This document shows, one piece after another, positions 9,649-63,424 of a stretch of 64,000 nt of DNA. The DNA comes from Dugong dugon (Eukaryota; Chordata; Mammalia; Sirenia; Dugongidae): the NCBI GenBank assembly GCA_030035585.1, contig CM057469.1:62203501-62267500 (forward strand), written 5' to 3'. The translations under genes were made by a program, and so were the position numbers. Position 1 is the first letter of the stretch; the number at the start of each line of letters is the position of its first letter. The notes below the pieces were generated by a model, which was not told where the DNA came from, ran no database searches, and worked only from the letters and a program-made list of their open reading frames with translations.

Positions 9649-9702
9649 GAACACACACGTGTGTGTATATATATATATGTATATATATGTGTGTGTATGT
9701 TG
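9649..9702. repeat. (CA/TG)n-(TA)n microsatellite
   Basis: Composite simple repeat: acacacac, gtgtgtgt, then alternating atat and gtgt runs. Confidence 0.9.
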
Positions 9703-10645: not shown

Positions 10646-10768
10646 TTGTTAAGTGTTTACCAGTAACAGAACCAGAGAATGGGAGAGTTATCTGTGGTGC
10701 ACTGGAATCAGACCAAGAATATTCTAGTGGACCAGTGGTATGGTTTGAGTGTAATTCACGCTTCACTT
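10646..10768 (+). pseudogene. Truncated CFH CCP3 exon (relic)
   Basis: After a good acceptor (ttttttcag, 10645) the + strand reads VKCLPVTEPENG and continues to WFECNS, matching the first two thirds of factor H CCP3, including Cys1 and Cys2. Homology stops at about 10768 and runs into unrelated AT-rich DNA. Cys3, the conserved Trp, Cys4 and the donor site are absent, so the module cannot fold or splice normally. In CFH, CCP3 lies in the CCP1-4 region that binds C3b and supports factor I cofactor and decay-accelerating activity. The relic keeps its CFH-like position upstream of the CCP5 relic at 23.1 kb. The call rests on recognisable residue patterns, not an alignment. Confidence 0.85.
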
Positions 10769-11773: not shown

Positions 11774-12290
11774 TGTCTTAGTCATCTAGTGCTGCTCTTA
11801 AAGAAATACCACAGGTGGATGGCTTTCACAAAGAGAAATTTATTTTCTCACAGTCTAGTAGGCTAGAAGTCCAAATTGAGGGCGTCCACTCCAGGGGAAG
11901 GCTTTCTCTGTTGGCTCTGGAGGAAGGTCCTCGTTGTCATCAGTCTTCCCCTGGACTAGAAGCTTCTCTGCGCAGGAACCTCGGGTCCAAAGGACGCGCT
12001 CTGCTCCAAGAGCTTCCTTCTTGGTGGTATGAGGTCCCAGTTCTCTGCTTGCTTCTCTTTCTTTTTATCTCTTGGGAGATAAAAACTGGTGCAGGCCACA
12101 CCCCAGGGAAACTCTCTTTACATTGGATCAGGGATGTGACCTGGGTAAGGGTGGTGTTACAATCCCACCCTAATCCTCTTTAACATAAAGTTACAATCAC
12201 GATATGGAGGATGACCACACAATTTTGGGAATTGTGGCCCAGCCAAATTGATATACACATTTTTGTGGGGACATAATTTAAACCATGACA
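11774..12290 (-). mobile_element. MaLR-like solo LTR, copy 2
   Basis: Same family as 7690-8208. The + strand starts 'tgtcttagtcatctagtgct' and ends 'aaaccatgaca', giving TG...CA ends on the minus strand. Flanking target duplication not clear. Internal open frames are incidental. Confidence 0.7.
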
Positions 12291-13385
12291 CATAGCCTAG
12301 TCTACCCGACAGTGAGATCCATACAGAAGCATTTCTCTTCTTAGGAATCCTTTCTAACAAAACTAGGTCTTAGAGTCAATGATGATTAACTAATACTGAT
12401 AGCCTAGCAAATACTGCATACTGTAGAGGCTTATGGAAGGGGTTTACATTTGTGCAACTAGTTTTCTGTGGCTAGTAAAAGCTTCCTGGAATTGCAGATG
12501 TGCAAGAAAAGTCTTAAAGAGAAAATGGACATATTTCAGAAGTTGAGGATGGGGTGAGTATGCCATGGGGAGGAAGATGCAAATGCACTGAGGCTTATGC
12601 TTATTTGTTGTTCATTGTTCACAGGGGCCCTAGTGTAGGAGGCAAGTAAGAAGTCAGTGATAGATTGTAGATAGGCCAGCGCAGGGTTCTGATGTGCTGT
12701 ATACATGACGCTGAAGAATTTGGCTCTTTTTCAGCCTGATTTGGGGATCAATGAAAGAGGATAAGTGGAGTGACAGTGACCAGATGGAAGACCATTAAGT
12801 TATACACTAGGAAAATGTACTAGAAAGATTGGAGGTTAAGGAAGCCATAATCCCTGGAAAAAAATGTTTGAGAGAAGGTGGTATCAAAGATGATGGTTTT
12901 TATTGACAGAAAAACTGGTGGATGGTGAGGCCACAAATGCAAAAAGTCAGTTACTTTTCAGAAACATAGTAAGAAAGAGTTAATTTCATTGACAGTGTTC
13001 AGATCATAATTATAATTGATAAGTGGAAAATGTGTGACTTTTGTCATTCACTTAGTAAAAATACCACAGTAAACATTTTATTCATGCATTTGAAGAATAT
13101 TACTGGCCATCATTTATTTAAAGGATGAACGAGTCCTCAAACCAAGTAAAATTAGCAAAATAAATTAATCAAAATTTTAATGTCCTTCAAAATGAATTTT
13201 AAGAACAATAGATAAATCATTCATGAAGCATTCAATTCAAAACAGAACTTTTGTTTGATTGGGTAATTTATGTAATGAAACTAAAGTTGTGTTTTTAAAT
13301 GACTATGTCTTTGGCACAGCCCTTTAATTCATAGTTAACGTTTTGGAATTTATTGTCTTCTATTTAGAAATTTCCTGTATTGTTG
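12291..13385. other. Unassigned unique sequence
   Basis: No CCP signature, RNA gene or repeat recognised. A CCP4 relic was looked for here because CCP4 should fall between the CCP3 and CCP5 relics, and none was seen. Confidence 0.35.
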
Positions 13386-20523: not shown

Positions 20524-20973
20524 AAAAAAAAAGTCAAATAATTCAGTTAAAAAATGCACAAAGGTTATGAATAGGCACTTCACCAAAGAAGACATTCAAG
20601 CAGCTAACAACAACAACAAAAAAGACCAGACTTACTGGTCTGACAGAGACTGGAGAAACCCCAAGAGTATGGCCCAGATACCCTTTTAGCTCAATAATGG
20701 AGGCTCTCCTCAGCTTCATCCTTCAGCCAAAGATTAGATAGGCCCATAAAACAAAACAAGACTAAATGGGCACACCAGCCTGGATACAATGGTGAGAAGG
20801 CAGGAGAGGGCAGGAAAGCTGGTAAAAGGGAACCCAAGATTGAGAAGGGGAGAGTGTTGACATGTGGAGTTGGCAACCAATGTCACAAAACAATACATGT
20901 CCTAATTGTTTAATGAGAAGCTAGTTTGTTCTGTAAACCTTCATCTAAAGTAAGATGGAAAAAAAAAAAAAAA

Positions 20974-21130
20974 AAGAATGAACTCCTTGAGAACCTCAAT
21001 TTCTTTGCCATTTATCATGATGCTGTTTATTGGTCCAGTCATAAGGATTTTCACTTTCTTTATGATCAGGAGTAGTCCATACTGAAGGCTGTAGCCTTTT
21101 ACCTTCATCATAACAAAAGATGAAATAGAT
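20974..21130 (-). mobile_element. RTE-type LINE fragment, right half
   Basis: Continues the RTE broken at 13610: 'ccatttatcatgatgctgtt', 'tattggtccagtcataagg', 'gtagtccatactgaaggctg'. Confidence 0.8.
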
Positions 21131-22209
21131 AGCACCCAAAAAGTAAGTAGAATAAAGGAAGAGGAGCCAGAAAAAAATTAAATAAAAATAATATCTTAGA
21201 AGGAGGAGAAGCATTAGAACATAAAAATACAAGTCATTAGAGAACTTCAAGAAATCAGTGATCCACAGTCCCAAAATATTTCAGAGAAAATTATCTGTTC
21301 AGTTCAACAAATAGCTAAGAAGTCCATATTACATACCAACCAATGTAATATTTTCAATATAAAGAGTTTTTGAATTTGGAAACTGGAGAACATTTGTGAC
21401 TTTTGTCAGAGTAGTGCCAACACATGGAGGTGTTAGAAGCCAGGTAACAATGGGTTGAAGAATAAATTGGTGGAAAGAAAGTGGAGATAGAAGTTGTAAA
21501 ATGGTATTTTGAGGACCTGGTTTGTGAAAGCATGGAAGAATGTAGCACATAAGCAAAACTGGAACAAAAGGTTGGGAGAAAGAGTTTAAAATAGGACAAG
21601 CTTGCATGTCCATATGAGACAGAGTGGCTGACAACATGAGAGAGAAGAAAAGAATAAACAATGGTTTAAGATCAATGGGAAAACAAAAGGTCTGAAGATG
21701 AGAAGCTACCTGAATTTGAAAGAAACACCTTTATCTAAGACTTAAAAGGCTTAAGTATGAAATAGATTCAACTAAAGTTGAAGGAATTTTGAAATGGAGG
21801 GAAATCACAACTGGTAGTCTCAATTGTTTTCTGTGAACACAAGGACTTATTATTTGTTGGTGAAGGAGCAACTGGGTTAGGTTGCTTGAGGAAAGTGAGG
21901 AGAGTATGGGACAGTTCCTTTGGGGGAAAAAAGGAAGCAAATTAGGGACATATAAATGGGTTTCAGGCAATGCTGAGTTTCTACCACAGGTTTTTAGCTA
22001 AAATTACAACATGGCAGCAATAAACATGGTTATGTGGCTCTTCTACAACAATGCCTAAAAGGAATGATATTTTATTAGAAAAGGGAGCTTGAAAAGTTTA
22101 TCCGTTGCCAAGATTTAGCAGAGTTGATGGATAGGAATGAGAAGGAGCTTTATCAACTGAGATAGACTAGGTGAGACTATAGCTCACTAATTTAAACTGA
22201 TTGTCCCTT
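21131..22209. other. Unassigned unique sequence between CCP relics
   Basis: No CCP exon, RNA gene or repeat recognised. Confidence 0.3.
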
Positions 22210-22350
22210 TTTTTGGTAAATAAAGTTTGATTGGAATACAGCCATAGCCATTTTTTTTTATGTCTTCTTTTGTGCTATAATGGCACAGCTGAGGGGTTGT
22301 GATGAGAACTTCTATCTGGTGCTTTACAAAAAAAAGGTTTTCCAACCCCT
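22210..22350 (-). mobile_element. hAT-Charlie (MER1-group) DNA transposon fragment
   Basis: Ends 'ttttccaacccctgg', the complement of the CAGGGGTTGG-type terminal repeat. Internal 'ctatctggtgctttacaaa' and 'aaataaagtttgattggaa' are typical of this non-autonomous hAT family. Confidence 0.65.
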
Positions 22351-23059: not shown

Positions 23060-23233
23060 GAGTCACATGTAATCCTCCTTATATTGCAGATGGTTTCTAC
23101 ACACCTCAAAGGATTATACACAGAAGTGAAGATAAAATCAGCTACAGGTGAAAAGATGGGTTTTATCCTGCAACCAGGGGAAATATGGCACTATGTACCA
23201 GCAGTGGCTGGTCACCTACACCAAGATGTAGCT
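23060..23233 (+). pseudogene. CFH CCP5 exon disabled by a stop at Cys2
   Basis: A 174-base exon with preserved acceptor (ttttaag, 23059) and donor (gtaaat, 23234), phase 1 at both ends. It reads VTCNPPYIADG, then after the break [22 protein letters not shown], closely resembling factor H CCP5. The codon for the second conserved cysteine is TGA (23149-23151), in frame, so the module is truncated and a disulfide partner is lost. Everything else, including Cys1, Cys3, Trp and Cys4, is kept. Splice sites and length are intact, so decay looks recent or the exon may be spliced around. It lies 8 kb upstream of the signal-peptide exon. Confidence 0.87.
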
Positions 23234-23551: not shown

Positions 23552-23935
23552 GCTGTTATTAGGTGCTGTCAAGGTCGTACATAGCAATCCTATGTAAAAC
23601 AGAACCAAACACTTCCCGGCCCTGCACCATCCTCACAATCATTGTTATTCTTGAGCCCATTGTTGCAGCCACTGTGTCAGTCCATCTCATTGAGGGTCTT
23701 TCTCTTTTTCAGTGACCTTCTACTTTGCCAAGCATGATGTCCTTCTCCAGGGATTGAACTCTCCTGATAACATGTCTAGCTTATATGAGACGTAGTCTCG
23801 CCATCCTTGCTACTAAGGAGCATTCTGGCTGTACTTCTTCCAAGACAAATTTACTCATTCTTTTGGCAGTCTATGGTATATTCAACATTCTCGCCAATAC
23901 CGTCATTCAAAGGCATCGATCCTTTAGGTTTTCCT
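23552..23935 (-). mobile_element. RTE-type LINE, 3' fragment
   Basis: Carries the same 3' segment as 9703-10068: 'gagcccattgttgcagccac', 'ccaagcatgatgtccttctc', 'aaggagcattctggctgtac'. The coding frame is broken. Confidence 0.85.
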
Positions 23936-28214: not shown

Positions 28215-28733
28215 GGAAAGCTGGTGATAGGGAACCCCAGGTTGAGAAGGGACAGTGTTAACATGTCATGGGGTTATTAACCATTGTCATAGGGCAATAT
28301 GTGTACTAACTGTTTAATGAGAAACTATTCTGCAAATCTTAATCTAAGGTACCAAAAAAAAAAAAAGAATTATCTATGTGAGATCAAACTGACAACAGCA
28401 ACTCAAAAGGTTTGATGGGAAGCCTCGAGGACAATGAGTTGAAGATAGTGGTGATGGAATAATTTGGGAAAGGATAGTGAGAGTAGCAGCACAACTCAGA
28501 GAATGTAATTGATGTCACTGAATCGTACATTTAGAAACTTTCAAAATGGTGTAACTCTGGCTATATATATTTACTCCAAAAAAAAGGTCCTCCAAGGTCG
28601 AGAAGGGAGAGTGTTGATATGTTGTGGGGTTGTTAATCAATGTCATAAAACAATACGTGTACTGACTGTTTAATGAGAAACTATTTGTTCTGTAAACCTT
28701 CATCTAAAGTACAATAAAAAAATTTAAAAAAAA
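28215..28733 (+). repeat. Duplicated L1 3'-terminal segment
   Basis: The string around 'gagaagggacagtgttaaca' to 'tgtttaatgagaaact', ending in A-runs, occurs at 28215-28368 and again at 28580-28733, separated by about 210 bases of 3'-UTR-like DNA. Confidence 0.7.
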
Positions 28734-28744
28734 AAAGTTGGAAA

Positions 28745-29400
28745 TGCCAGACTTTTAAACATTAGCCATTCTGTGTGTAGTATATTTAATTGAATTTCTA
28801 TGTTGTGTTTCACTGATGAGTAATGATACTTAACACATTTGTGAATCTATGAGGTGATTGCTTGATTGCTGTAATATTTTAAGTGTTTATATATGATACA
28901 TATGGGTCTTTTGTCTGATATATTACACATATCTCCTCCCAATCTAAGACTTTTTTTATTTTTTGTTTTATGATTATGTGTTTTGATGGACATGATTTAA
29001 AATTATTACTGATGTCTAATATATCATTTTTTAAAATAATTCATTCTGTTTGGTTTCTTAAGAGAAAATATTAGTCTACAACCACCAACAGGGCATATTC
29101 CACTATGCTTTTATCTGAAGTTTTACCTTTTTAACTTCACATTTAGGACTATGATCCAACTTAAATCAATTTATTTGGTGTAAGAAAGAGGCCAAGTTTC
29201 AGTTTTGTTTACCATCCAAAATCCCAGTTGTTGCTCCAGCATTTCTGGGAAAAACTTATTTTTTTCCACATCAAATTGCATTAGTTTATAAAAATAATGA
29301 TTTACATGTGTGGGTCTATTTCTGGACTCTTCCGTTCCATTGATCACTACCACACAGTGTTAAACAAGTCTAACAAGTTTTTAATTCTACACCAGATATT
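28745..29400 (-). mobile_element. Older L1, right part
   Basis: Continues the L1 split at 24299, with typical L1 minus-strand strings such as 'ccatccaaaatcccagttgt', 'tgtgggtctatttctggac' and 'tccgttccattgatcac'. Confidence 0.6.
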
Positions 29401-30391: not shown

Positions 30392-30432
<41 letters not shown>

Positions 30433-31159: not shown

Positions 31160-31248
31160 ACACTTGGTAACTGTTAATGAAGCTGATTTCAAACCCAAAA
31201 CAACACAACTGGAATATGGGTATTTATATATCATTGGGAACATCTAAC
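31160..31248 (+). promoter_or_regulatory. Candidate proximal promoter / 5' UTR of the CFHR-like gene
   Basis: The 90 bases before the ATG contain GTTAAT (31173-31178), half of the HNF1 palindrome used by liver-expressed genes, and a TATA-like tatttatata (31221-31230). The TATA-like box is only about 20 bases from the ATG, so it would imply an almost absent 5' UTR and may be coincidental. Confidence 0.25.
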
Positions 31249-49300: not shown

Positions 49301-52300
49301 TTTCTTTTTTATTTGATGTCATATGTAAGAAATCTTTCCCTAACTTAAGATTGTAAGATTTTACTTTATGATTCCTTCTAGAAATTTTACAGTCTACATT
49401 TAGGTCTGTGTTCCATATTGAGTTCATTTTTTTATATGATGAGAGGTATAGAGCAAACTTTACTTATATGCATTTTGATATTCCATAGTTGCAGCACCTA
49501 TTGTTGAAAAAAGTGTTTTCTCCACTAAATTGCCTTAGCATACTTGTAAAATATCAGTTGTCCATAGATGTTTGGGTCTATTTTGGGGCTCTCTGTTCTG
49601 TTCCAATGATCTTTTCTCTAACCTGACACAAATTCTACACTGGCTTGACTAGCTAAGTTTTTAATGTCTTGACATTGGGTAGTGTTAACGCTCCAACTTT
49701 GTTAATTTCTTTCAAAAATCTATTAGAAGTCCTTTTCATTTCTATATGACTTTTTGAACAATCGTGACAATTACTACAAAAAAAAATTCTAGGAGTTTTA
49801 TGAGAATTGCATTGAATCTGTAGATCAGTATTGATTGGGAAAACTGAATTAACTGTATTGAGTCTTCTGACTCATGAACACATTACATCCCTTCATTTAT
49901 TAAGTATTTTTTAATATTTCTCAGCAATAACTTCTAGTTTTTGATACACAGATCTTGCACACATTTTATTAGATTTATTCCTAAATATTTCATGTTTTTA
50001 TGCCAGTGGGCACAATATTTTTTTGAATTTTAATTTATGACAGTTCATAAGAATAAATTGATTTTCTTGTGTTTATTGATCTCATAATATCTCATAACCT
50101 TGCTAAACTCACCTCTTAATTCTAGTAATCCTTTGGATTGTCTATAAAGATGTCACGGCAGCTTCAAATATAGACATTTTTACTTGTATTCCAATCCAGA
50201 TGCTCTTTATTTCTTCTTCCTGCGTTATTTTACTGACCAGAACCTCCAGTGAAATATTGAATAGATGTGGTGATAGTAAACATCCATGTGTTCTTCTGAT
50301 CTTAGGGTAGACACATTCAGTGTTTCATCATTGAGATGTCTATTTTTTTTTTTTTTAGCTTCTTAAAATGATGAATTACACTGATAGCTTTTCTAATGAT
50401 AAGCTATCCTTGTATCCTTTGAAAACTCATTTGATCCTAATAGATTATCCTTTTTATAGAATTTTGGATGCAATTGTTAAAATTTTGTTATGAAGCTTTG
50501 CATCTTTGTTCATGAGGGATACTGGTCTGCAGTTTTTAAGTATTTGTAATGTCTTTGTTTGGTTTTGGTAACAGGATAATGCTAGCCAATGAAAATGCAA
50601 ATGTTTCCTCTCTCTTCAGTTTTGTGGACAATCTATGTAGAATTATAATTTTTTTCTCCCGTAAGAGTTTGGTAGAATTCACTAATGAAGCCATTTGTAC
50701 TTGGACTTTTCTTTTGGGGAAAGTTTTTTTTTTTTTTAATCTACAAATTCAACTTATTTAATACATATAAGTATATCCATGTTATATATCCTTTCTTGAT
50801 TGAGCTTTGGTAGGTTGTTGCCCTGAGAAATCTGACAATTCTCTAAGTTCTTGAGTTTACTGACATAATATCGTTCATGATGTCCCTTTATTATCCTTTT
50901 AATTTCTGTTGATATTAGTAATTTGTGTATTCTCTCTTTTTTTTCTCCTTATTGGTCTGTTTAAAGGTTTGCAATTATATTCATTTAAGATTTTTGTTCC
51001 ATTAATTGCCTCTTTTTTTTTTTTTTTTTTACTTTGTTAATTTTTGCTCTGATCTTTCTTTTTTTTTCCTTCTGTTTTCTTTGGGTTTAATATCCTACTT
51101 TTTCTAATGCTTAATGTGTAACTTGAAGTCATTGATGTGGAGCACTTTTTCTTTTCTAATACAGGTATTTAGTGTGACAGATTTCTTCCAAAGTACCACT
51201 TCCTGTGTTCACTTGCATTTTACTATGCTACTGAAAGCTATGCCACTGGTATTTCAAATACCAGCAGGCTCACCTATGATGGGCGGGTCTCAGCAAATCT
51301 TCCAGACTAAGAAAGACTAGGAACAAAGGCCTGGTCATCTGCTTCTGAAAATTAGCCAATGAAAACCTTATGGATCACAACAGAACATTGTCTAAATCAC
51401 TTGCTTTGCACACATCATCAGGAGGGATCGGTCACTAGAGGAGGACATCATGTTTGGTGAAAAAGGGATAGCAAGTATGAGGGAGATTCTTGGTGAGAAG
51501 GATTGGTAAAATATTTGCAAGGATTGACTTGAACATGTTGGTATCATGAGGATGATGCAACACTAGACAACGTTTCATTCTGTCAGAGTTGACGCTATGG
51601 CAATTATCAATCTATTAATGGCACAGCACTCATAATTCGTTTAAGAAATTATAAAAATCTAATTGTTTAATGGACCTGGAATCCTACAGCATGGTAAAGC
51701 TCTTTAAACAACTGTTTCTTTCTTGGTGCTTGTTTTAAATCTTTCTTTGTTTAAAAAAAATCTTTAATAATGCATCTTGACTTAATATCAGGAAATTTAG
51801 CTTATTTTCTCTGACACAGGAACTTGGATTATTACAGTTACTTCAGATGTTCATTTACAAATGACTGATTATTTTATTATGTTGCCATATTATTTGATTC
51901 TGAATAAAAAATATTTATTGAACATATGCTTATCTTTTCCTTATGCCTTCTTCATCTAGAAGCATGTTCAAAATCAGATATAAAAATTCAGAATGGATTT
52001 ATTTCTGAATCTAAGTATATGTATCCTATAAATTATCAAACACAATATACGTGTAAACCAGGATATGTAACAGCAGAGGGTAAAATATCAGGATCTATCA
52101 GGTGCTTGGAAAGTGGATGGTCTACTCAACCCATATGCATTAGTAAGTAATTTATTAGGCTTATTCTCCTGATGATAGTTTTACAAACGTTTACTGTAAT
52201 TAATTCTCTTTTATAGAGGGTAGGAGTGTGGGGTGGGGCCAAAATGTTTCCATTTGTAAGGATAAATAAACTCTTTGAGAAATTATATATATATATAAAA

Positions 52301-55300
52301 TGTAGAATTTCTATATATAATGTAGAAATCATATATATAATATAGAAATCATATACATAATATACAAATCATGTATATAATGTGGAAATCATATATAATA
52401 AAGAAATCATATACATAATGTAGAAATCATATATAATGTGGAAATCATATACATATACATGTACGTATATAGTTCTTTAGTTAGGTCTCTTTTGCTTTTT
52501 TAGAGTAATTACTGATAGGAAGGAGGATCATCCCATCTTTTCAAGTTTTTCCCACTTTAAAGCAATCCCGTGATTTAAAAATCTGTGACGGAGTCTCATG
52601 AATATTTTCCTGTAGACTTGCTTGTTTTCATCTGAAATCTTCCTGTCTGTTGTGCCTGTGTTTAGGTGACTAGCATTTTGTATTGGAGTCCTTGCTCCTA
52701 GATATAAACGTCATGTTTTTAAGTGAAGAGATGAGTCCATAGTGCAGAATTCCCCAAGAATTTGACCTTTATAATTTATGCAATTAATGCCATAGGAGAG
52801 GTCCACTTATGAAAATTCCTGCTGTCCTTTTGGAAGATCTTCATTAACTTCTAGGTAATGAAGAGAAACATTTCTTGATTGTGCTAAACTCTATTGTATT
52901 GAAAGTTTTCCTGGATGTTTATAAACTATCTGGATGTTTATAAAGATCCTCTAACAACAATTTGCTTGTTTTGCCTTTATATACACTTTATTTTCCCAAA
53001 ACTCCTCAGTGATATTTTTGAAGTAAAAGATACCTTTCCTACTGTGTAATTATTTTTTTAATTTGTTTTTCAATTTTTATGTTGACTATGGGCTCTGGCT
53101 AAAGGAAAAATGACAAAAGTTGCTCTCATATCAACACATTTTATACTGCATTGGAATCAAATATCTATTACAAGGCTTATTATGGAAGAGATTATGTCAG
53201 ATAAAGGAGTTTTGTTTCTGGGAAGGGATTACTTGCCCACTCAATAACATGAAATGAAATCCTCAATTTTATCATGCATTAGAATCTTTTTTTTTTTTTT
53301 TTGCATTAGAATCTTGTGATATACCATTCTTTGAGAATGCCAGACCAAAAAGTGATGGCACATGGTTTAAGCTCAATGACAAGCTGGACTATGAATGCAG
53401 AGCTGGCTATGAAAACACAGGTGGAAGCACCACAGGCTCTATAGTATGTGGTCATGATGGTTGGTCTGACACACCCATGTGTTATGGTAAGTACTGTCCT
53501 TTTTTTTTTTTTCCTGGTATTCATTTTTTTAGGATATTAAAATCTGTATATGTTCCTTTTGGGAGGTAATTTAATTATCTAGAGACGTTGTTAAGGAACA
53601 ATGTTTAAAATCTATGTGTCTTCTTCTGATTTAATGTAAATTGGGAGGAGATGGTGTTTTGAAGCCCAAAGATAATAATCTATCTTTAAAACAGTGCATC
53701 AAAGCAATGTTTTCTGTGGGCCACATACATTACAGATATGTCATTAAAATATAAATTGTTTTCAAGTAATCCTAAATGCAAATCTTGAAAATATTTGAAA
53801 CTTGGCACCCATTACCAAAGTATGGTTAGTCACAACCTCTTCAGCTATTTTACTCCTGAGTTTTTGCTTTTGCCTTCCCACCTTGAGTGCTAATTTCTTC
53901 AGCTCCTACCAGGAACTCTTCATTTTCAGACATCAACACGTTCTCTGGACTACTCTGAAAATCTCTTGTATGTTTACCAAACAGTTGTCTGTTTTCTATG
54001 AATAGAAATTAACCTGGAATCTGTAAGAAATGAGTGGATATAGAGAGTTCCAAGCAAAGGAAAAAATATGTGCAAAGTTCTAAAAGAAAAATACTATTTG
54101 GGAAATGCCAGGATGAGAAGAGTCTAGTCAAGATGTGAGATAATTTTATGAGCAGAGGTTGGATAGGAGGCAAAGGCAAGATTATCCAGGTTATTTCAGA
54201 TCGTATTAGCATTGGATAAACTTTATGCTTGATGAAAAGACAAAAGAGTTTTAACAAAAACAATGATATAAATAGACTTATATTTGTGAAAGTTTTTTGT
54301 TGTTATTTGTCTTTGTTCCTGGATGCTGTGCATGAGATAGTCAAAACAGGAAACAGTGAGTCCATGTAGGGTGAGCAATGGTGGGGATTGAGATAAGGTG
54401 ATGGCTGAGGAGATGCAGAGCAGAGGATAAATTTGGGATATATTTGGTGGTAGAAAGGAGAGGCAATGTTATAAATGTTAGGTCAAGGGACTCATATGTT
54501 TTCCTTTGTTTTTCAATAACAAGTAGGTAAATGGTAATGCCACTGTATGCCTATCTGTCTGTCTGTCTGTATTGCACATGCAGACAGGCTGTACCTCAAA
54601 CTTCCAGGCAGCCATTAAACTGCTAGGAATGAGGTATATACAACCACTGGCATCAGTGGTTCCATGGATGCTACATTCATCTGTGATCAAGCTGAACACA
54701 TGAGACACTTAACAGTGTTAGCAAAGTGAAAGTCATTATTAGTAGTTATAGAAAGCAAACAGTAAACAATTACAACAGATTCTCAAAGGGGAAATGCTTA
54801 CCCTTCCCCAGATTACCCATGTCCATTCTTATGTTGCTGGGCAGGCACAATGTTATTCAGGTCAGATGCTGTCTTCACATCACTGCTGCCTCTGGCTACC
54901 ACCGCACTGCTGGGGGCCTGCATGGCTCCCAAGTCTTCTACTCTTATGCTGGGCCTTACTTAGCCTCACCTCATTCACAGGAATTCTCCTACACAAGATA
55001 TCCTGAGCCTCTGCTGGTGGAACCTTCCAGGCCTCTACCACTGGATCCTGCCATGCTTTCCATGCCTACCCCGCCGGAAGGCCTGCACGGATCCTGCTTT
55101 GCTGCCCAAGGGGGAGAGTTGTGCAACCCTAGCACAGGGCACAGGAAGGCCTCTGACATTCAGGGACAAGTGTTATAGCTCTTTTAGCTCCTTCAACAAG
55201 TGCCTGGGCACCGTCATTTCTCAGCAAGCCTCCTGCCTGGAGGCGCTCAGCTCTCTCTCCATGGGCCAGAAAGGCCACGGCTGGTCTTGAAGATCCTATC

Positions 55301-58300: not shown

Positions 58301-61300
58301 AACATGCTGACTACTGAGGATAAGGCTGTGGTAGAGAGGGAAGCAGACAGAGATTGAATACAGCAGGTAGATATGTCCCTGTGACTGTGGGAGGGAAGGG
58401 AAACCAGAGCTCCTCTGGAGGTCTAGGCTTTGGTGACAACAGGGCTACATCCAACTTTGTAACAGGAGGAAAGAAGGACAATGACTTCTGTAACTTGAAT
58501 GCTGAAACAAAGCAGGAGGTGATGGTTTCTATTTTCTGTGAAGTATGAGGCAAGGCCATCTGAGAGTAAGCAGTGTTTGGGGGTAGGTGAAGGAGGAGCA
58601 CTGGGCATCGAGAAAAGGTTTAAAATAGAGACTTCAGAGAGAAGAAGAGTGAGTTTATTATAGTGGTGAGGTAGACTTGGTTATCACTGTTGACAGCCCA
58701 TTAAATCTGACTTACTTAGGCTGTCAACAAACACCTATTAAATAGGCTAGGAGAAAATACTGAAAAAGACAAATACAGGCCTGCCTTTCCAGAGCTTTCA
58801 TTAAAATATAGGAGAGTGGGAACCGGGGTGGGGAACATAATATATTAAACCAAATAAAGAAGCAAATGCCAAGTATATTTTATATATTACTGTGTACAAA
58901 GAAATAAAAGAAGCCAAGGATTTAGATTAAAAAAAAAATAGGAGGGGATAAAAAACTCTGTTTTGTGTAGGAAGGTGTTTATGAAAAGAAAGATAGAAAA
59001 CCATTCAGAGTAGGGGAAAGGGAGTGTGAAACAGCTGAGGCAGCAAAGAACTTGACTTTATTCAAAAAATTAAAAGGCGAGAAATCCTGGATACTGGATT
59101 GAGAGAGGGGAAGGCACAAGATAATGTTGGATATGTAGGCAAGGGCTGGATCATAAAGTGATAGTATGTAAACGTATTAGTTGAAAAACACCCAACAATC
59201 AAGATTTTTTTTACTCGTTAGGACAATTTGTTCCACAACCTGATGAGAAAAATAATTTATGTAAAAAGAGTACAAAATATGTAAACAAACACAAATACAA
59301 ATAAAAGAATTACTATGTAGTAGAATGAAATTGAAATTTAAGAGAGGAATTTTAGTGATTCTTGTTCAAGTGTGATCTCGATTAAGCTGCTAACCTCAGA
59401 ATAAAAATAAAAACAAAAGCTTATTTTTTAGTTATTTATTTTTGGGCATTACCTTTTTGAAATAGTTAATTCATATTACATTTTAATTTGTATATTATAT
59501 ATAGTTTAATTTATATTAAATTTATATTTAATTTTATGATTAGTTTTATATTGACTCTTTGATATTATGAATTTTCTTGTTAGCATGATTCCAAGTCTTA
59601 AATTCTAGTTTTTAATTTTATAAATTAATGAGTGTTTGTTTTCTTCCTTTGTGGAAAATTTAATTGATTTTTAATGATCTCTAGCTTAAAATACATTAGA
59701 TATTGCATCTTTCCTGAATTTTGGTTCCCCAATTATATTAAAAGGAGCCTTGATGGTGCAGTGGTTAAGTACTTGGCTACTAACTGAAAGTCAGCAGTTC
59801 GAACTCATTAGCCATTTTGCAGAAAAAAAGATGTAGCAGTCTGTGTCTGTAAAGATTACAGCCTTGGAAAATGGTTGGGGTAGTTTTACTCTGTCTTACA
59901 GGGTTGCTATGAATCAGAATTGCCTTGACAGCAATTGGCTAATTAAATAAATATCAATTTTTACTGAGTGTGCAATATAAAAACTATAACATTCCTTTTT
60001 AATGTGAGAGAATAATTTTGTTTTTAGAGTGAAAAAATTAACCTTAAAAATTTTATACATAGCAATGATAAAATGAGATCCAAACTAAACAAGTTTACTT
60101 TACAAATACATTTTCAGAATATACACATTGCTTTTCAGTGCCTTAGTATGTCTCACAGAGTTCCACATAAATTGACAGCGCGTACAAAAGTTTTTCCACA
60201 GAAGAGGGTTTATCTGATGCCCCTCTTTGTGCACAGCACCCAGCACCTCATTTTTGCATGAAACATATAAAGCTTATTTTGATAATAAGAAATTACATGT
60301 TTTCATTAAACTATTTTACTTTTGTTTTTTTTTAGAAAGAGAATGCGGTGTTCCTGATATACCACCAAACTTACACGCTTCGCCCAGGAAAGACAAATAT
60401 AAAATTGGAGATGTACTGCATTTCTCCTGTAGACAGAGATCTAAAAGAGTTGGACCAGATTCCATTCAGTGCTACCACTTTGGATGGTCCCCAAATCCCC
60501 CAACATGTAAAGGTGAATATTTATCTTACAATTGATGAAACAACAGTTAATTTTTTAGATATCAACACCTTCTTTGTTTCATTTTTTGTGGCCTTTCAGA
60601 TTATCTATAATGTAACACATTATGCCAGAGACATTATAGCTGGGACGGATATGGGTCTGGTGGTAGACGGCTCAGATAGATATCTCTCCAATTGTTTCTT
60701 GAAATGTGTATTGGGAGTATTCAGAGATATATATGTATGGCAACTGAGATTGGAGAGACTTCTTTTGTTTCTTTTCAATTACTTATAATGCCATCATTAA
60801 TGCTGAACATTTTATATAGATGGACCTTATCCAAGTTTCATTGTGCTTGTCTAAACAATATTCAAACAGCTCAAAGTCAATTCAGTCACATTTGTGGCTT
60901 AATCAAGGTTAAAATATGTTGATCAACAGATTGTCTCAAGTGATGGTACTTTTTCAAAACATTTTGAAACAATGTTTCCATGGAGTATGAATACTACGTT
61001 AATTTACACTACTATATTTGCTAACCTCTACACATCTTTAAAATATTCAGATTATTGAACATATTTTAAAGGCTTAACAATACCTACAATGAACTAGTTC
61101 AGTATTTTAAAAAAAAAAAAAAATGCTGTTACTGTCAAGATGATTCTGACTGAAAGAAACCTTATGAAACAGAGTAGAACTGCCCCATAGGGTTCCCAAA
61201 GCTGTAATCTTTACGGAAGTAGATTGCCACATCTTTCTCCCACAGAATGGCTGGTGGACTTTAACCTCTGGTCTTTCATTCAGTTAGGAGCCAAGCCCTT

Positions 61301-63424
61301 TACTACTGTGCCTCCAGGGATTTTTAGTTCAGGATAAGTAATAAAATTGAGAAATAAGAACCTGGAGTAAACACCATTCTTTTTTCATTGTTTAAGAATG
61401 CTGTCATGAAAAAATAATAAATATCTTTCCATTTTGCTTTATTTTTTATTGTAAAAGAAACTACTCAACTATTATTTAAACATTAATTCTACTGTAGGGC
61501 AAGTAAAATCTTGTGGTCCACCTCCTCAGCTCCTCAACGGGGACATTAAGGGGTCAAAGAAAGAAAAATATGGCCACAGTGAAGTGGTGGAATATGTTTG
61601 CAATCCCAGATTCCTAATGAAGGGATCTAAGAAAATTCAATGTGTTGACGGAGATTGGACAACTTTGCCTATATGTGTAGGTAATGTACAAAAAATATTA
61701 ATATTTAAACTTGAATCAGCAATTTTATTTGTACTCCTATAAAGACAAATTATGTTTTAAAGGGAAACTTATTTCTGTGACATTTACACAGAGGAAGAGA
61801 GTACATGTGGGGATGTACCTATACTGGAGCATGGCTATAGCTTGTCCTCTGACCCTCCCTATCACCATGGACATTCAGTGGAGTTCAGTTGCAGAGAATC
61901 CTTTACAATGATTGGATACAGATCAATTACATGTGTCAAAGGAATGTGGACCCAACTTCCTCAGTGTACTGGTGAGAAAATACTTCTCAAATTGACATTT
62001 AATAAAGTTTAATATGTTTATCTTAAAAAATGTATTTAGAAATATTGCTGAAAATGTCAGTTCTTGAATTGTAATGAATCTAAACATTTGTTGTTTATAG
62101 TTCAATATGTGTCTACTGGGGAAAAATAAAAACTAGCAACAGAATATTATGGTTCTTATGTCCCTGTGATTAATATGGTTTATTATTATAATGTGAAGCT
62201 AAATTGTACTCGACCTTATAGGACAGAGTAGAACTCCCCACAGGGTTTCCCAGGTGGATTCAAACTGCCAAATTTTGGTTAGCAGCCAAATGCTTGAATC
62301 AGCCTCCTTTCTTTCTTTCAAGGTGGCATTACAAAGCCATTATTTTCTTTGACCAATTACTTGACTTTTCTTAACTCTGTCCAGCCTCCCTCAATTCTGC
62401 TTTTCTAATCATTAACAACAAACACTATCAAAGACTTACATTTCTACTTCATCAGATTCAAAAAGGACTCCCATAATCATAGAACTATTGAAATATGTAG
62501 CTATATAACAAGCTTGCATGGTCTGTATAGTTACTCATTTTGAGCCAACGAAGATTTATTTTTAGGGTTTCCAACATAATGGGTGTCTAAAACAGCTTCT
62601 CAAAGACCTTAAGATTATATAATAAAACAAGCTGGGATTTTTAGTACCCAATTTCTTATTTCAAGCCCTGTATCTGTTCTTTTGGTGATCTTGAAGAGAT
62701 CAGCTAAAATATTTAGATTCTGTATAACACCTTAGATATATTTTTTAATTATATTTCATTACTTTTCTGAAAACATATATTTAAAGTAGCAGCTTCTTTT
62801 ATCCTATTCCCATAGGTAATGTTTTTTATTTCTAATGCTTTAAGGTTATTGATTAAAAATAATGTAGTGTCTCTTGAGATCAGGAGAACAAAAGTATATA
62901 CACATTTGTACACATTTCAGCTACGGGGCCACATTAAGTTGCATGATTAGTGTTCAGTATGTAGATCATCCAAGAAAGTAAACCTCTTAGACTCTTCAAA
63001 TCCCCAAAGTGTAAAATGTTTTTATGACAGGTATTTACTCTGATATTTCAAAGAATGGATGCAAAAGTTGTATTTATACATAATAGCCCGTCTTTCATGC
63101 AGTAAGATCAGGAATAAATTGATAGATAGAATTTATTAGCATAAATCATGATTTCATTACATCATTGATTCTGTAGCTAGAGTTATATAGTAGTTGTTTA
63201 GTTGTTTTTATAATTAGTCTTTTCATGGGAATATTTTTATTTTATAGCAACAGAACAACTTCAGAAGTGTAAATTATCAAGGATACTTGGATCCAATTTA
63301 AGACTATCAAATCAGACTAAATTTAATCATAATACCAACTTCAGTTACAGATGTAGAGGAAAATCAGAATACAAACAATCAACCTGCATAAATGGAAGGT
63401 GGGATCCCAAGCTAACTTGCACAG
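31249..63424 (+). CDS. CFHR: CFHR3/4-like complement factor H-related gene, CCP6-CCP13 (3' end outside window)
   Basis: Multi-exon gene predicted to encode a secreted, plasma-type complement protein built only of CCP modules. Exons: 31249-31306 signal peptide, 33825-34019, 34481-34665 (broken), 51960-52142, 53310-53486, 60336-60512, 61498-61680, 61792-61971, 63248-63424. All introns are phase 1 and all intact module exons are multiples of three. Without the broken CCP7 exon, the eight intact exons total 1330 bases, 443 codons plus one base, to the last donor. The signal peptide is of CFHR3/CFHR4 type, but human CFHR3 then carries CCP6, 7, 8, 19 and 20 equivalents, whereas here CCP9-13 follow in CFH order. 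The CCP1-4 regulatory region is absent, so cofactor activity is unlikely. Binding of C3b, heparin or cell surfaces through later modules is inferred. Including the CCP7 exon would stop translation early and invite nonsense-mediated decay. Confidence 0.85.
31307..32034. other. First intron, unassigned part
   Basis: AT-rich intronic DNA without recognised features. Confidence 0.5.
32035..32185 (+). mobile_element. AfroSINE, head-truncated
   Basis: 'gattcaaacccaccagccac', 'aaaagacctggcgatatgct' and tail 'gagtcagaattgactcaatg'. Confidence 0.8.
32486..32690 (-). mobile_element. AfroSINE, diverged complement copy
   Basis: Tail 'accagttgccatggagtcag', middle 'tttcttctgtggtgtgtctg', head region 'acgttttggttaccagctga'. 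More diverged than neighbouring copies. Confidence 0.7.
32691..33824. other. First intron, right part
   Basis: Non-coding. Three near-identical 'aaaatggc' units occur near 33110-33145. It ends in the acceptor tttttttattccaag before 33825. Confidence 0.45.
33825..34019 (+). CDS. CFHR: CCP6-type exon (first CCP of the protein)
   Basis: 195 bases (65 codons), acceptor ccaag, donor gtaagt, phase 1 at both ends. The module reads [12 protein letters not shown] (Cys1), GKYYYYYC (Cys2), GYIKCT (Cys3), GWSPDAPC (Trp, Cys4), the pattern of factor H CCP6 and of the first CCP of CFHR3/4. Five consecutive tyrosines precede Cys2, where human CFH has YYSYY. CCP6-8 of CFH form a heparin and C-reactive-protein binding region. 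Here CCP6 would sit at the extreme N-terminus of the mature protein. Confidence 0.92.
34020..34480. other. Short intron between CCP6 and CCP7 exons
   Basis: 461 bases, AT-rich, with no repeats recognised. It ends in the acceptor tgatccttag. Confidence 0.6.
34481..34665 (+). pseudogene. CCP7-type exon broken by an 8-base insertion and a stop
   Basis: Splice sites look usable (acceptor ccttag 34480, donor gtaaat 34666), but the exon is 185 bases, two beyond a multiple of three. It reads [10 protein letters not shown] (Cys1), GVQCNPGY (Cys2), TIACTE (Cys3) and then meets TAG at 34627-34629. The expected DDWSPPRKC (Trp, Cys4) follows in another frame. The excess fits an insertion of about eight bases (tatgacta, near 34621-34628) resembling an imperfect tandem copy of the following gatgactg. 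Removing it would give 177 bases, a normal module length. Inclusion gives a stop, while skipping joins CCP6 to CCP8 in frame because all exons share phase 1. In factor H, CCP7 carries the Y402H site and a heparin-binding face. Confidence 0.88.
34666..34969. other. Start of the 17.3-kb intron between CCP7 and CCP8
   Basis: Non-coding, no repeat recognised. Confidence 0.4.
34970..36070 (-). mobile_element. Old L1 3' region, minus strand, left part
   Basis: L1-typical strings: 'tgttccttgttgctctacat', 'attgacaattactttatcta', 'tcaatccattttgggttgat'. Interrupted by an LTR at 36071. Confidence 0.6.
36071..36584 (-). mobile_element. MaLR-like solo LTR, copy 3
   Basis: The + strand begins 'tgtcttagttatctagtgct' and ends 'aatccatgaca'. 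Flanks ttagg (36066-36070) and ttaag (36585-36589) fit a 5-base target duplication with one change. Inserted into the L1, as in copy 1. Confidence 0.75.
36585..37941 (-). mobile_element. Old L1 remnants
   Basis: 'aagtctttttgaatttctgc' continues the interrupted L1. At 37030-37200 'ggtataaattgagcaaaata' and 'aaattcacaggtatttactg' resemble an L1 3' end. The remainder to 37941 is unassigned. Confidence 0.4.
37942..38099 (-). mobile_element. AfroSINE
   Basis: Complement copy from 'ctccttgctgatgagttgat' to 'gcaccaccaggactcc'. Confidence 0.85.
38110..40613. mobile_element. RTE-type LINE with 5' inversion (twin-primed)
   Basis: 38110-39168 is the 3' half on the minus strand (RT from YADDT near 38870 to the C-terminal SLEKDIMLG and 3' end). 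39169-40613 is the 5' half on the plus strand (endonuclease GDWNEKVGN, linker, RT up to [13 protein letters not shown]). Both halves meet at the same point of the element: 'gactgtgtggatca' followed by about 20 more matching bases occurs at 40568-40605 and, reversed, at 39133-39170. Confidence 0.87.
39190..40610 (+). pseudogene. RTE ORF2 relic: endonuclease, linker and N-terminal RT
   Basis: Broken into blocks: endonuclease segment at 39155-39388 (ALIITGDWN), linker at 39840-40034 ([19 protein letters not shown]), and RT palm segment at 40155-40622 ([32 protein letters not shown]). Frameshifts and stops separate the blocks. An intact RTE ORF2 would copy RNA by target-primed reverse transcription. 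Confidence 0.85.
40614..40799. other. Unassigned intronic sequence
   Basis: Nothing recognised. Confidence 0.3.
40800..41015 (+). mobile_element. hAT-Charlie (MER1-group) DNA transposon
   Basis: Contains 'gtcagatagtaaatacg', 'gtcatatggtttctgttgca', 'caatatgtaaatgaatgag' and ends 'cagtggtttgccaaaccc', the pattern of MER1-group hAT elements. Same group as 22210-22350, opposite orientation. Confidence 0.65.
41016..41654. other. Unassigned intronic sequence
   Basis: No feature recognised. Ends with an A-rich tract (aaaaaaacaaaacaaaaaa) next to a SINE. Confidence 0.3.
41655..41822 (-). mobile_element. AfroSINE
   Basis: 'aaacccgttgctgtcaagtc', 'ctctaggacagggtagaac', head 'gtgacaccaggactcc'. Confidence 0.85.
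41881..45159 (-). mobile_element. Full-length RTE-type LINE with target-site duplication
   Basis: 3.28 kb flanked by ACTGATTGGG (41871-41880) and ACTGATTGAG (45160-45169). The minus strand runs from a 5' UTR near 45150 ('gctggaagctatgccactgg' in complement) through N-terminal region, endonuclease, RT and C-terminal region to a 3' end made of TTG/CAA repeats. This is the most complete RTE of the window and serves as the reference for the other copies. Confidence 0.9.
41990..44963 (-). pseudogene. RTE ORF2 relic (endonuclease and reverse transcriptase)
   Basis: Blocks in order on the minus strand: N-terminal region 44963-44628 ([30 protein letters not shown]), endonuclease 44618-44193 ([16 protein letters not shown]), linker 43664-43370 ([14 protein letters not shown]), RT with YAED in place of YADD near 42650, and C-terminal part 42239-42036 ([12 protein letters not shown]). 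Several frameshifts and the altered catalytic box make it inactive. Confidence 0.87.
45378..46450 (-). mobile_element. L1 3' region, minus strand
   Basis: Shares segments with 6255-7000: 'atctagttcttctggtctca', 'taataaactatgttatgtca'. Belongs to the same L1 lineage. 5'-truncated. Confidence 0.65.
46500..47645 (-). mobile_element. Endogenous retrovirus pol relic, split by an AfroSINE
   Basis: On the minus strand, reverse-transcriptase landmarks occur in the correct order: fingers motif with W...LTAD.REL (about 47578-47640), catalytic box YLDD (47296-47307), thumb motif GLFDFWRN (about 46827-46857), then integrase-like sequence with VD and PLI (46500-46680). The frames are interrupted by many stops and frameshifts. 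The spacing between YLDD and the thumb becomes normal once the SINE at 47038-47218 is discounted. No env or LTR recognised next to it. Confidence 0.65.
47038..47218 (+). mobile_element. AfroSINE inserted in the retroviral pol relic
   Basis: 'gagtccctaggtggcacaaa', 'gccttggaagaaaggcttgg', tail 'tgagttggaatatattcaac'. Confidence 0.85.
47690..51070 (-). mobile_element. Old L1, minus strand, heavily mutated
   Basis: L1 minus-strand strings throughout: 'accatttattgaaaagacta', 'ttgcctttgcttctttatca', 'cacaactggactctgtattc'. The short frame at 49203-49427 on the minus strand keeps the L1 RT segment [13 protein letters not shown]. Probably two overlapping or tandem old copies, because the 'accatttattgaaaa' type segment is repeated near 49490. 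Confidence 0.65.
51236..51630 (+). mobile_element. RTE-derived element reduced to its two ends
   Basis: The first part (ctatgccactggtatttcaa to gaaaaccttatgg) matches the 5' end of the full-length RTE in the opposite orientation at 44.97-45.11 kb. The second part ('ggaggacatcatgtttggtg', 'gacaacgtttcattctgtca') matches the 3' end. Everything between is missing, leaving about 395 bases. Confidence 0.7.
51631..51959. other. Intron end before the CCP8 exon
   Basis: Unique, ending in tatgccttcttcatctag. Confidence 0.5.
51960..52142 (+). CDS. CFHR: CCP8-type exon
   Basis: 183 bases (61 codons), acceptor catctag, donor gtaagt, phase 1 at both ends. It reads [19 protein letters not shown] (Cys1), [12 protein letters not shown] (Cys2), [10 protein letters not shown] (Cys3), GWSTQPIC (Trp, Cys4). 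This is the factor H CCP8 pattern and also the third module of CFHR3. If CCP7 is skipped it follows CCP6 directly, with the junction codon AAA. Confidence 0.93.
52301..52455. repeat. 20-base minisatellite, about eight units
   Basis: Unit approximately tgtagaaatcatatatataa, with units starting near 52301, 52321, 52341, 52361, 52381, 52399, 52419 and 52438. It lies 160 bases downstream of the CCP8 donor and should vary in length between individuals. Confidence 0.85.
52456..53309. other. Intron between CCP8 and CCP9
   Basis: No repeat family recognised. A T-run at 53287-53302 precedes the acceptor ttgcattag. Confidence 0.45.
53310..53486 (+). CDS. CFHR: CCP9-type exon
   Basis: 177 bases (59 codons), acceptor gcattag, donor gtaagt, phase 1 at both ends. 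It reads [16 protein letters not shown] (Cys1), [10 protein letters not shown] (Cys2), GSIVCGHDG (Cys3), GWSDTPMC (Trp, Cys4), matching factor H CCP9. Its presence after CCP8 departs from the human CFHR3 plan (CCP8 then CCP19) and follows CFH itself. CFHR4 also has CCP9-like modules. Confidence 0.93.
53487..54567. other. Intron after CCP9, left part
   Basis: No repeat family recognised, apart from a short (TGTC)n tract at 54553-54570. Confidence 0.35.
54568..55708 (-). mobile_element. Probable long LTR (about 1.1 kb), relatively GC-rich
   Basis: On the minus strand it begins TGTAGTGCAATGAATC and ends GTGCAATACA, forming short inverted ends (TGTAGTGC / GCAATACA). It contains a TATA-like gcatatataagggcc about 200 bases in, as in retroviral U3 promoters. 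Flanking duplication not identified. The open frames inside show no known domain. Confidence 0.4.
55880..57930 (-). mobile_element. RTE-type LINE, 5'-truncated
   Basis: The minus strand carries linker, RT and C-terminal parts of RTE ORF2: [17 protein letters not shown] (56971-56654), catalytic box YVDD near 56655, and [14 protein letters not shown] (56409-56146). The endonuclease is missing. Reading-frame breaks throughout. Confidence 0.87.
57931..59741. other. Intron between CCP9 and CCP10, unassigned part
   Basis: No exon and no repeat family recognised. AT-rich, especially 59400-59700. Confidence 0.35.
59742..59942 (+). mobile_element. AfroSINE, long subtype
   Basis: 'ggagccttgatggtgcagtg', 'gtctgtaaagattacagcc', tail 'atgaatcagaattgccttga'. 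Confidence 0.85.
60336..60512 (+). CDS. CFHR: CCP10-type exon
   Basis: 177 bases (59 codons), acceptor ttttttag, donor gtgaat, phase 1 at both ends. It reads [13 protein letters not shown] (Cys1), [12 protein letters not shown] (Cys2), DSIQCYHFG (Cys3), GWSPNPPTC (Trp, Cys4). This matches factor H CCP10 and the related third module of CFHR5. The ECGVPDI start and [14 protein letters not shown] end are diagnostic. Confidence 0.93.
60513..61122. other. Intron between CCP10 and CCP11, left part
   Basis: Unique AT-rich DNA. The open frames at 60348-60922 overlap the exon in other frames and are incidental. Confidence 0.45.
61123..61320 (-). mobile_element. AfroSINE, long subtype
   Basis: Complement copy with 'gctgtaatctttacggaagt', 'ttctcccacagaatggctgg', head 'actgtgcctccaggga', and a poly-A-like run at 61110-61123. 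Confidence 0.85.
61498..61680 (+). CDS. CFHR: CCP11-type exon
   Basis: 183 bases (61 codons), acceptor actgtag, donor gtaatg, phase 1 at both ends. It reads [17 protein letters not shown] (Cys1), [14 protein letters not shown] (Cys2), KIQCVDGDW (Cys3, Trp), TTLPIC (Cys4), matching factor H CCP11 almost residue for residue in its core. Only 111 bases of intron separate it from CCP12. Confidence 0.94.
61792..61971 (+). CDS. CFHR: CCP12-type exon
   Basis: 180 bases (60 codons), acceptor tttacacag, donor gtgaga, phase 1 at both ends. It reads [15 protein letters not shown] (Cys1), [17 protein letters not shown] (Cys2), ITCVKGMW (Cys3, Trp), TQLPQC (Cys4), matching factor H CCP12. Confidence 0.94.
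61972..63247. other. Intron between CCP12 and CCP13
   Basis: Contains a diverged AfroSINE fragment at 62208-62300. Otherwise unique AT-rich DNA, ending in the acceptor tattttatag. Confidence 0.5.
62208..62300 (-). mobile_element. AfroSINE fragment
   Basis: 'ttataggacagagtagaact', 'gtggattcaaactgcc', 'ttttggttagcagccaaatg'. Confidence 0.75.
63248..63424 (+). CDS. CFHR: CCP13-type exon
   Basis: 177 bases (59 codons), acceptor ttttatag, donor gtaagg, phase 1 at both ends. It reads [17 protein letters not shown] (Cys1), [14 protein letters not shown] (Cys2), STCINGRW (Cys3, Trp), DPKLTC (Cys4), matching factor H CCP13. Two N-glycosylation sequons are visible (NQT and NFS). It is the last module in the window, and its good donor shows that the gene continues to the right. 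Confidence 0.93.

What the first reader, a model, noticed from the sequence alone, without database searches (positions are those of the whole stretch)
10646..63424. A decayed duplicate of CFH: relic CCP3 and CCP5 lie in order ahead of a living CCP6-CCP13 gene
Along the + strand the module types run CCP3 (truncated), CCP5 (stop at Cys2), CFHR3/4-type signal exon, CCP6, CCP7 (broken), CCP8, 9, 10, 11, 12, 13, exactly the CFH order. The simplest reading is that a whole CFH gene was duplicated, its 5' half decayed, and transcription now starts from a signal exon located in the CCP5-CCP6 intron. This would be a direct snapshot of how a CFHR-type gene is born from CFH. Seen: module order and lesions. 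Inferred: the history.
Basis: partly seen in the sequence, partly recalled or inferred. Interest (0 to 1): 0.85.

Follow-up and report, generated by a model that had tools for sequence, protein, structure and literature searches.

The report
Dugong factor H gene with relics
A factor H-like immune gene of the dugong still has, in front of its usable part, decayed front-half pieces of the parent factor H gene, joined to a signal exon of an older related gene type, so it looks like a cut-and-paste product of this gene cluster rather than a simple gene birth.

Summary
CCP3 (truncated), CCP5 (stop at Cys2), a CFHR3/4-type signal exon, CCP6, broken CCP7 and CCP8-13 lie in CFH order. The window is dugong, about 0.6 Mb downstream of intact CFH on one contig. 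New here: window introns align collinearly with dugong CFH introns from just after CCP2 to past CCP20. CCP4 survives as an acceptor plus about 10 bases. Beyond the window CCP14, 19 and 20 are intact; CCP15 and CCP18 are broken.

A CFH-derived paralogue with a decayed 5' end is real, and an elephant relative also has CCP4-5 ahead of CCP6. But no CCP1, CCP2 or CFH signal exon was found, so a whole-gene copy is not shown. The signal exon lies in a block absent from dugong CFH and from the part of copy B's intron that I read. A downstream CFHR-like relic shares the block, and this signal type precedes CCP6 in proteins of several placental orders. It was probably not born here. Modules are a mosaic, as gene conversion makes. 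'Living' is unproven: CCP7 and CCP15 are frameshifted with usable splice sites. Best reading: a CFH/CFHR3-type chimera in a tandem cluster.

The parts
459..632 (+). Intact CCP7-like exon of an upstream CFHR-type gene (phase 1/1, gtaagt donor); limits how much CFH 5' end can lie ahead of the relics
8286..9658 (+). Block collinear with the dugong CFH intron after CCP2b (C11:61510715-61512149), with one SINE inside; left edge of CFH homology
10646..10764 (+). CCP3 relic: acceptor intact, last part of exon and donor removed by a deletion of about 82 bases relative to dugong CFH
12290..13377 (+). CFH CCP3-CCP4 intron plus acceptor and about 10 bases of CCP4; the rest of CCP4 and about 2.3 kb of CFH have no counterpart
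20970..22348 (+). CFH CCP4-CCP5 intron block (C11:61516905-61518271)
23060..23233 (+). CCP5 relic: splice sites intact, TGA at Cys2; 52 of 56 comparable residues as in dugong CFH
23601..23924 (.). Multi-copy repeat fragment at the junction between CFH-type intron and the signal-exon block
28730..33155 (+). Signal-exon block (left piece 23924-24306) without counterpart in dugong CFH apart from SINE pieces; shared with downstream relic gene D. Copy B matches from 32848 on, so the CFH-foreign part ends about 32847
31249..31306 (+). CFHR3/4-type signal exon, intact donor
33825..34019 (+). CCP6 exon, intact
34481..34665 (+). CCP7 exon, frameshifted by an 8-base tandem duplication, splice sites kept
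51960..52142 (+). CCP8 exon, intact
53310..53486 (+). CCP9 exon, intact
60336..60512 (+). CCP10 exon, intact
61498..61680 (+). CCP11 exon, intact
61792..61971 (+). CCP12 exon, intact
63248..63424 (+). CCP13 exon, intact; beyond the window follow CCP14 (intact), CCP15 (5-base deletion), CCP18 (acceptor lost, +2 frameshift), CCP19 and CCP20 (intact); CCP16 and CCP17 not found

Best explanation
The locus is a chimeric CFH-family gene in the dugong CFH-CFHR tandem cluster. Its left part is a decayed remnant of the CFH 5' half (intron after CCP2, CCP3, a stub of CCP4, CCP5). This is joined, at a repeat in the CCP5-CCP6 intron, to an older CFHR3/4-type promoter and signal-exon block. Behind that stand CFH-type modules CCP6 to CCP20. 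Inferred: recombination or deletion between tandem CFH and CFHR3-type copies made the join, as rearrangement makes human CFH/CFHR hybrid genes. Transcription from the CFHR3-type promoter leaves CCP3-5 outside the transcript, so they decayed. Gene conversion with CFH later overwrote some modules (clearest at CCP9 and CCP12). If translated, with CCP7 and CCP15 skipped in phase, it would make a secreted CFHR protein without the CFH regulatory modules CCP1-4, which could bind CFH ligands and compete with CFH. Shown: collinearity, lesions, signal block, mosaic trees. Inferred: the joining event, its order, promoter use, expression and function.
For: Window introns align with dugong CFH from 61510715 to past CCP20. 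On the + strand, the 100-kb CFH region and about 5.6 kb of copy B hold no signal-exon match scoring 30 or more, while the window (98) and downstream gene D (77, with a stop) do. Window-D divergence is 0.186-0.200 in the signal block and 0.187 in the neighbouring CCP6 intron, so there is no sign that the block was passed between them recently. CFH and copy B keep a CFH-type intron there. 24 of 240 fetched proteins (24 of the 37 with an R3/4-type signal) have that signal followed by CCP6. Noncoding divergence from CFH is lower in the relic part (676 of 5282) than from the CCP7-8 intron to CCP15 (2719 of 16335; p 2e-6 on 100-site blocks). Conversion by CFH is direct in copy B: divergence 0.169 left of CCP6, 0.022 across it. 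Ten intact exons, about 1.84 kb, hold 0 gap events against CFH where the intron rate (360 in 29818 sites) predicts about 11 on one lineage.
Against: The relic part does not differ significantly (block test) from the CCP6-7 flank (p 0.13) or CCP18-20 (p 0.23), so one old duplication plus conversion also fits. At CCP6 the window is nearer to CFH (0.159) than to D (0.196), so window and D do not clearly share a branch there. Elephant P0136 has CCP4-5 ahead of CCP6 too, which favours an inherited layout. In 13 of 37 proteins with an R3/4-type signal the first assigned module is not CCP6. CCP7 and CCP15 frameshifts suggest the gene may be dead.
Confidence: 0.55

Rival explanations
1. One reading: CFH was duplicated (whole, or from the CCP2-CCP3 intron on) before elephants and sirenians split, its 5' half decayed separately in both, a CFHR3-type signal block entered the CCP5-6 intron early, and patches such as CCP5, 6, 9 and 12 were later overwritten by dugong CFH.
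For: Collinear introns over the whole length; elephant P0136 = CCP4-15, 19, 20 with a degenerate CCP4; CCP7+8 and CCP13 group the window gene with P0136 and reject pairing it with dugong CFH (AU p 0.043 and 0.014), while CCP9+12 do the opposite (p 0.009).
Against: No CCP1-2 found in the window; relic part less diverged than the middle; the signal block is shared with gene D, ahead of which no CFH-type CCP3-5 block was found.
Confidence: 0.3
2. Ancestral alternative promoter: the CFHR3/4 signal exon originally lay in the CCP5-CCP6 intron of CFH, was lost from CFH and copy B in the dugong lineage, and this gene keeps the ancestral layout.
For: The signal exon sits exactly in that intron here; the dugong CFH intron was heavily invaded by repeats; horse P0018 and Tupaia P0233 are named CFH isoforms by their source and carry such a signal.
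Against: Copy B, about 0.17 diverged from CFH left of CCP6, also has CFH-type intron there and no signal exon in the part read. Horse P0018 is 91% identical to horse CFH outside gaps (78% with gaps), so it looks like a paralogue; Tupaia P0233 could not be compared with a matching full-length Tupaia CFH (the Tupaia proteins fetched are 61% and 73% identical to it).
Confidence: 0.15
3. Recently dead gene: the whole locus is now a duplicated pseudogene and the intact exons are merely young remains. (A question of state; compatible with each history above.)
For: Frameshifts in CCP7 and CCP15 whose splice sites look usable, CCP18 acceptor lost; the public model P0128 is named LOW QUALITY.
Against: Ten exons without gap or stop against about 11 gap events expected on one lineage; the window gene's protein branch (0.127) is no longer than those of dugong and elephant CFH (0.140, 0.150). 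These show past constraint only.
Confidence: 0.4

Closest known systems
CFHR3/CFHR4 (human) and elephant CFHR3/4-like proteins (P0118, P0090)
   Same: Same type of signal exon directly followed by CCP6; no CCP1-5; ends in CCP19-20 (human signal recalled)
   Different: The dugong gene keeps a long CCP8-14 stretch and has CFH CCP3-5 relics upstream
Long CFHR genes: mouse FHR-C (at least 14 SCRs) and the predicted proteins P0162 horse, P0172 Tamandua, P0230 Myotis, P0233 Tupaia
   Same: CFH tail modules behind a CFHR-type start (FHR-C module count from passages of PMC11813886)
   Different: Whether 5' CFH relics exist there is unknown; DNA of those genes was not examined
Elephant CFH-like P0136 (CCP4-15, 19, 20)
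   Same: Closest outside relative for CCP7-8 and CCP13 among those compared; also has CCP4-5, CCP4 degenerate, ahead of CCP6
   Different: CCP5, CCP7 and CCP15 intact in the public protein; presence of a signal block unknown
Human CFH::CFHR hybrid genes in atypical HUS
   Same: Chimeras of CFH and CFHR made by rearrangement in the same tandem cluster (PMC9923232, passages)
   Different: Hybrids in the passages seen join near the CFH 3' end or between CFHRs, not in the CCP5-CCP6 intron

Membership tests
CFHR gene family | Tandem neighbour of CFH in the same cluster and orientation | tested here: met
   Same contig and strand, about 0.6 Mb downstream of CFH
CFHR gene family | Signal exon followed by CCPs homologous to CFH CCP6 onward, lacking CCP1-4 | tested here: met
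CFHR gene family | Ends in CCP19-CCP20 | tested here: met
   Intact at extended positions 84870-86043, outside the window
CFHR gene family | One open reading frame through all exons with usable splice sites | tested here: not met
   CCP7, CCP15 and CCP18 broken; open only if they are skipped. So I claim a CFHR-type gene or pseudogene, not a proven functional CFHR
CFHR gene family | Secreted plasma protein | not testable with these tools
   No expression data
CFH proper | CCP1-CCP4 regulatory modules behind the CFH signal exon | tested here: not met
   Not found or decayed; intact CFH lies elsewhere
Processed pseudogene of CFH | Intronless copy | tested here: not met
   CFH introns retained collinearly
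Whole-gene CFH duplicate | Homology to CFH promoter, signal exon, CCP1 and CCP2 | tested here: not met
   Homology begins about 140 bases after the CCP2b exon; the sequence just left of the window was not read

The most novel reading that the evidence does not exclude
The CFHR3/4 promoter and signal exon are an ancient alternative first exon of CFH itself, seated in the CCP5-CCP6 intron, so that any CFH duplicate becomes a CFHR simply by losing its 5' half; this dugong gene keeps the ancestral layout that dugong CFH has since lost.
Probability: 0.15. Interest if true: 0.7.

Novelty: new member of a known kind. Interest (0 to 1): 0.42.

Why it matters
CFHR genes are said to come from partial duplications of CFH (PMC10894998, passages). 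Remnants that show where the cut fell would make that history readable. Here the CFH remnant, the CFHR-type signal block and the CFH-type body lie side by side with measurable divergence, so the order of events and the part played by gene conversion become testable with a few more paenungulate genomes. It also shows that one CFH/CFHR gene can hold modules of different age, which matters for trees of this disease-linked family.

Tried and rejected
Rejected: chance or false exons (E-values, intron collinearity). Assembly gap as cause of the order: no N in the window, one 130-Mb contig; reads not examined. A CCP4-like hit at 33680-33760 (E 0.25) was dropped: it lies after CCP5 and next to CCP6, and the true CCP4 stub is at 13368. 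The first collinear chain was misled by L1 copies between 13 and 28 kb and was replaced by the low-depth blocks. Reading CCP5's closeness to dugong CFH as proof of a separate origin was given up after CCP9+12 (and weakly CCP6) showed the same pattern. Horse P0018 as an isoform of CFH with an intronic first exon was set aside: 91% identity to horse CFH outside gaps. Rfam search of the window at gathering thresholds found nothing. Paper searches: dugong with 'complement factor H' gave 0 papers; three searches on CFHR with evolution, duplication, conversion, pseudogene or elephant (20 of 51 listed, 53: 12 of 61, 77: 6 of 6) showed no title or abstract start about this locus.

Not done: search of the dugong genome with the signal block (tool busy every time), so copies of the block elsewhere in the cluster are uncounted; elephant or manatee DNA; the stretch just left of the window; 1.5 kb of copy B next to its CCP5.

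Full report
What the window is. A protein search with the spliced product of the window and a second one aimed at full-length CFH led to P0128, 'LOW QUALITY PROTEIN: complement factor H-like [Dugong dugon]', on a contig of 130,048,905 bases. All 14 of 14 module pieces that I translated from the window and the stretch behind it occur letter for letter in P0128. So the window is dugong. The real dugong CFH (P0130) is on the same contig and strand at 61506092-61593356, about 0.6 Mb upstream.

The observation. The signal exon 31249-31306 is of CFHR3/4 type. The exons of CCP5, 6 and 8-13 have AG/GT sites, phase-1 ends and lengths that are multiples of three.

Lesions. Against dugong CFH: CCP3 lost about 82 bases including its donor. 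CCP4 keeps only its acceptor and about 10 bases, followed by repeats, and about 2.3 kb of CFH has no counterpart. CCP5 has TGA at Cys2 with intact splice sites. CCP7 carries an 8-base tandem duplication (185 instead of 177 bases). Beyond the window (L041-L050), CCP14, CCP19 and CCP20 are intact, CCP15 has a 5-base deletion, and CCP18 has lost its acceptor and gained 2 bases; CCP16 and CCP17 gave no match.

Proof that the relics are CFH. Low-copy blocks of the window introns align in order with CFH introns: 8286-9658, 10355-11082, 11312-11783, 12290-13377, 20970-22348, 22556-23601, then 33156 onward to past CCP20. The left edge, 8286, lies about 140 bases after the CCP2b exon of CFH. Human and dugong queries for CCP1 and CCP2 give only weak cross-matches to other CCP exons or chance-level stretches, and a different CFHR-type exon stands at 459-632. 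So a duplication from the CCP2-CCP3 intron onward is shown; a whole-gene duplication is not.

The signal-exon block. Between 23601 and 33155 the window departs from CFH. The pieces 23924-24306 and 28730-33978 match a downstream gene D (extended coordinates 123061-130644), which has its own signal exon with a stop and a broken CCP6. No CFH-type CCP3-5 block was found in the stretch ahead of it. K2P divergence window-D is 0.186-0.200 in the signal block and 0.187 in the adjoining CCP6 intron, so the block does not look recently passed between them. Against a simple common branch: around CCP6 the window is nearer to CFH (0.159) than to D (0.196), and CFH-D is 0.172. The block is not in dugong CFH. 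Copy B, another CFH-like gene at 61.74-61.80 Mb, has a CFH-type intron up to the point that matches window 32848. I read copy B only from 61741600; about 1.5 kb next to its CCP5 was not read. On the + strand, no signal-exon match scoring 30 or more was found in the 100-kb CFH region or in that part of copy B.

Age of the signal type. Among 240 fetched proteins (the listed top hits, not a random sample), 37 have a signal nearest to the human CFHR3/4 type (score 45 or more), and 24 of these start with CCP6; the other 13 start with another assigned module. The 24 come from primates, a tree shrew, bats, hoofed mammals, a carnivore, insectivores, rodents, a xenarthran and afrotherians. P0162, P0172 and P0233 run CCP6-20, and P0230 CCP6-17,19,20. 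These are mostly gene predictions. The signal type therefore probably predates this locus.

Divergence along the gene. Noncoding differences to CFH: relic part 676 of 5282, CCP6-7 flank 630 of 4286, CCP7-8 intron to CCP15 2719 of 16335, CCP18-20 533 of 3915. On 100-site blocks the relic part differs from the CCP7-8-intron-to-CCP15 part (p 2e-6) but not from the other two (p 0.13 and 0.23); three of the four regions are internally uneven.

Module trees. With dugong CFH, elephant CFH (P0131), elephant CFH-like (P0136) and outgroups: CCP5 groups the window with dugong CFH (91/88); holding it with P0136 gives AU p 0.059. CCP9+12 do the same and reject P0136 (p 0.009). CCP6 does so weakly (64/89; P0136 not rejected, p 0.32). 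CCP7+8 and CCP13 group with P0136 and reject dugong CFH (p 0.043 and 0.014). CCP10+11 and the concatenation of CCP6-13 lean to P0136 without rejecting dugong CFH (p 0.43 and 0.32). CCP3, 40 residues, rejects a pair with dugong CFH (p 0.034) but has no elephant paralogue to test. Relics and body are thus both mosaics, as gene conversion would make them. Conversion is seen directly in copy B, where divergence from CFH drops from 0.169 left of CCP6 to 0.022 across it.

Elephant. P0136 begins with CCP4 (fourth Cys replaced) and CCP5 ahead of CCP6-15, 19 and 20. If it is the counterpart of this gene, the layout 'decaying CFH modules ahead of CCP6' is older than the elephant-sirenian split.

Is it alive? 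Ten exons (CCP6, 8-14, 19, 20; about 1.84 kb) have no stop and no gap event against CFH; the four gap events in exons fall in CCP3, CCP7, CCP15 and CCP18. Intron gaps (360 in 29818 aligned sites) predict about 11 gap events on one lineage for that length. dN 0.098 against dS 0.145 over 604 codons is loose constraint. This shows past selection on the reading frame. The CCP7 and CCP15 frameshifts, in exons with usable splice sites, mean that a long product exists only if those exons are skipped, or that the gene has died recently. I cannot decide.

How it would work. If transcribed from the block at about 31.2 kb, the pre-mRNA begins downstream of CCP3-5, which explains why these could decay. 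Skipping CCP7, 15 and 18 keeps the frame because the exons are phase 1/1. The product would be a secreted chain of CCP6, 8-14, 19-20, without the CFH regulatory CCP1-4 but with surface-binding modules, so a likely competitor of CFH, as is described for several CFHR proteins (PMC10894998 and PMC11813886, passages; otherwise general knowledge). This is inference.

Known background. PMC10894998 (passages) states that CFHR genes arose by partial duplications of CFH. PMC11813886 (passages) describes mouse FHR-C, whose last two SCRs are numbered 13-14, and mouse Cfhr genes without evidence of transcription. PMC9923232 (passages) describes human CFH/CFHR hybrids made by rearrangement. Against that background the locus is a new, instructive member of a known kind.

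Noticed in passing
window 1170-3160: GC-rich block between SINEs (the first 4 kb are 51% GC against 30-43% in the other 4-kb steps); the public dugong model P0128 takes its N-terminus from it. Nature not identified.
   Followed up: partly
G000:C11 61800170, 61914572, 62028999 and 61863272, 61977710, 62092117: CCP20 copies repeat at about 114.4 kb spacing in two series of three: it looks like a tandem triplication with two CFHR genes per unit; the upstream exon at 459-632 may belong to a cut fourth unit.
   Followed up: no
L051 and L006 (C11:61741600-61747193): Copy B shows a sharp drop of divergence from CFH around CCP6 (0.169 to 0.022), a clear gene-conversion tract.
   Followed up: yes
extended window coordinates 125939-160000 (L047-L050): Downstream relic gene D: signal exon with a stop, broken CCP6, CCP9 with its first Cys lost, a CCP14-like exon.
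   Followed up: partly
window 53275-53315: A poly-T run at the CCP9 acceptor is flanked by a direct repeat (tgcattagaatct), like a bare retroposon tail with target-site duplication that also doubled the acceptor.
   Followed up: no
L001 (G000:C16:76637587-76638162): One continuous stretch matching CFH residues 957-1148 across several exons without introns, with one stop: looks like a processed copy of the CFH 3' end.
   Followed up: no
window 33569-33804: The 236 bases just upstream of CCP6 have a second, 92.8% identical copy inside the dugong CFH CCP7-CCP8 intron (61545569-61545804).
   Followed up: no
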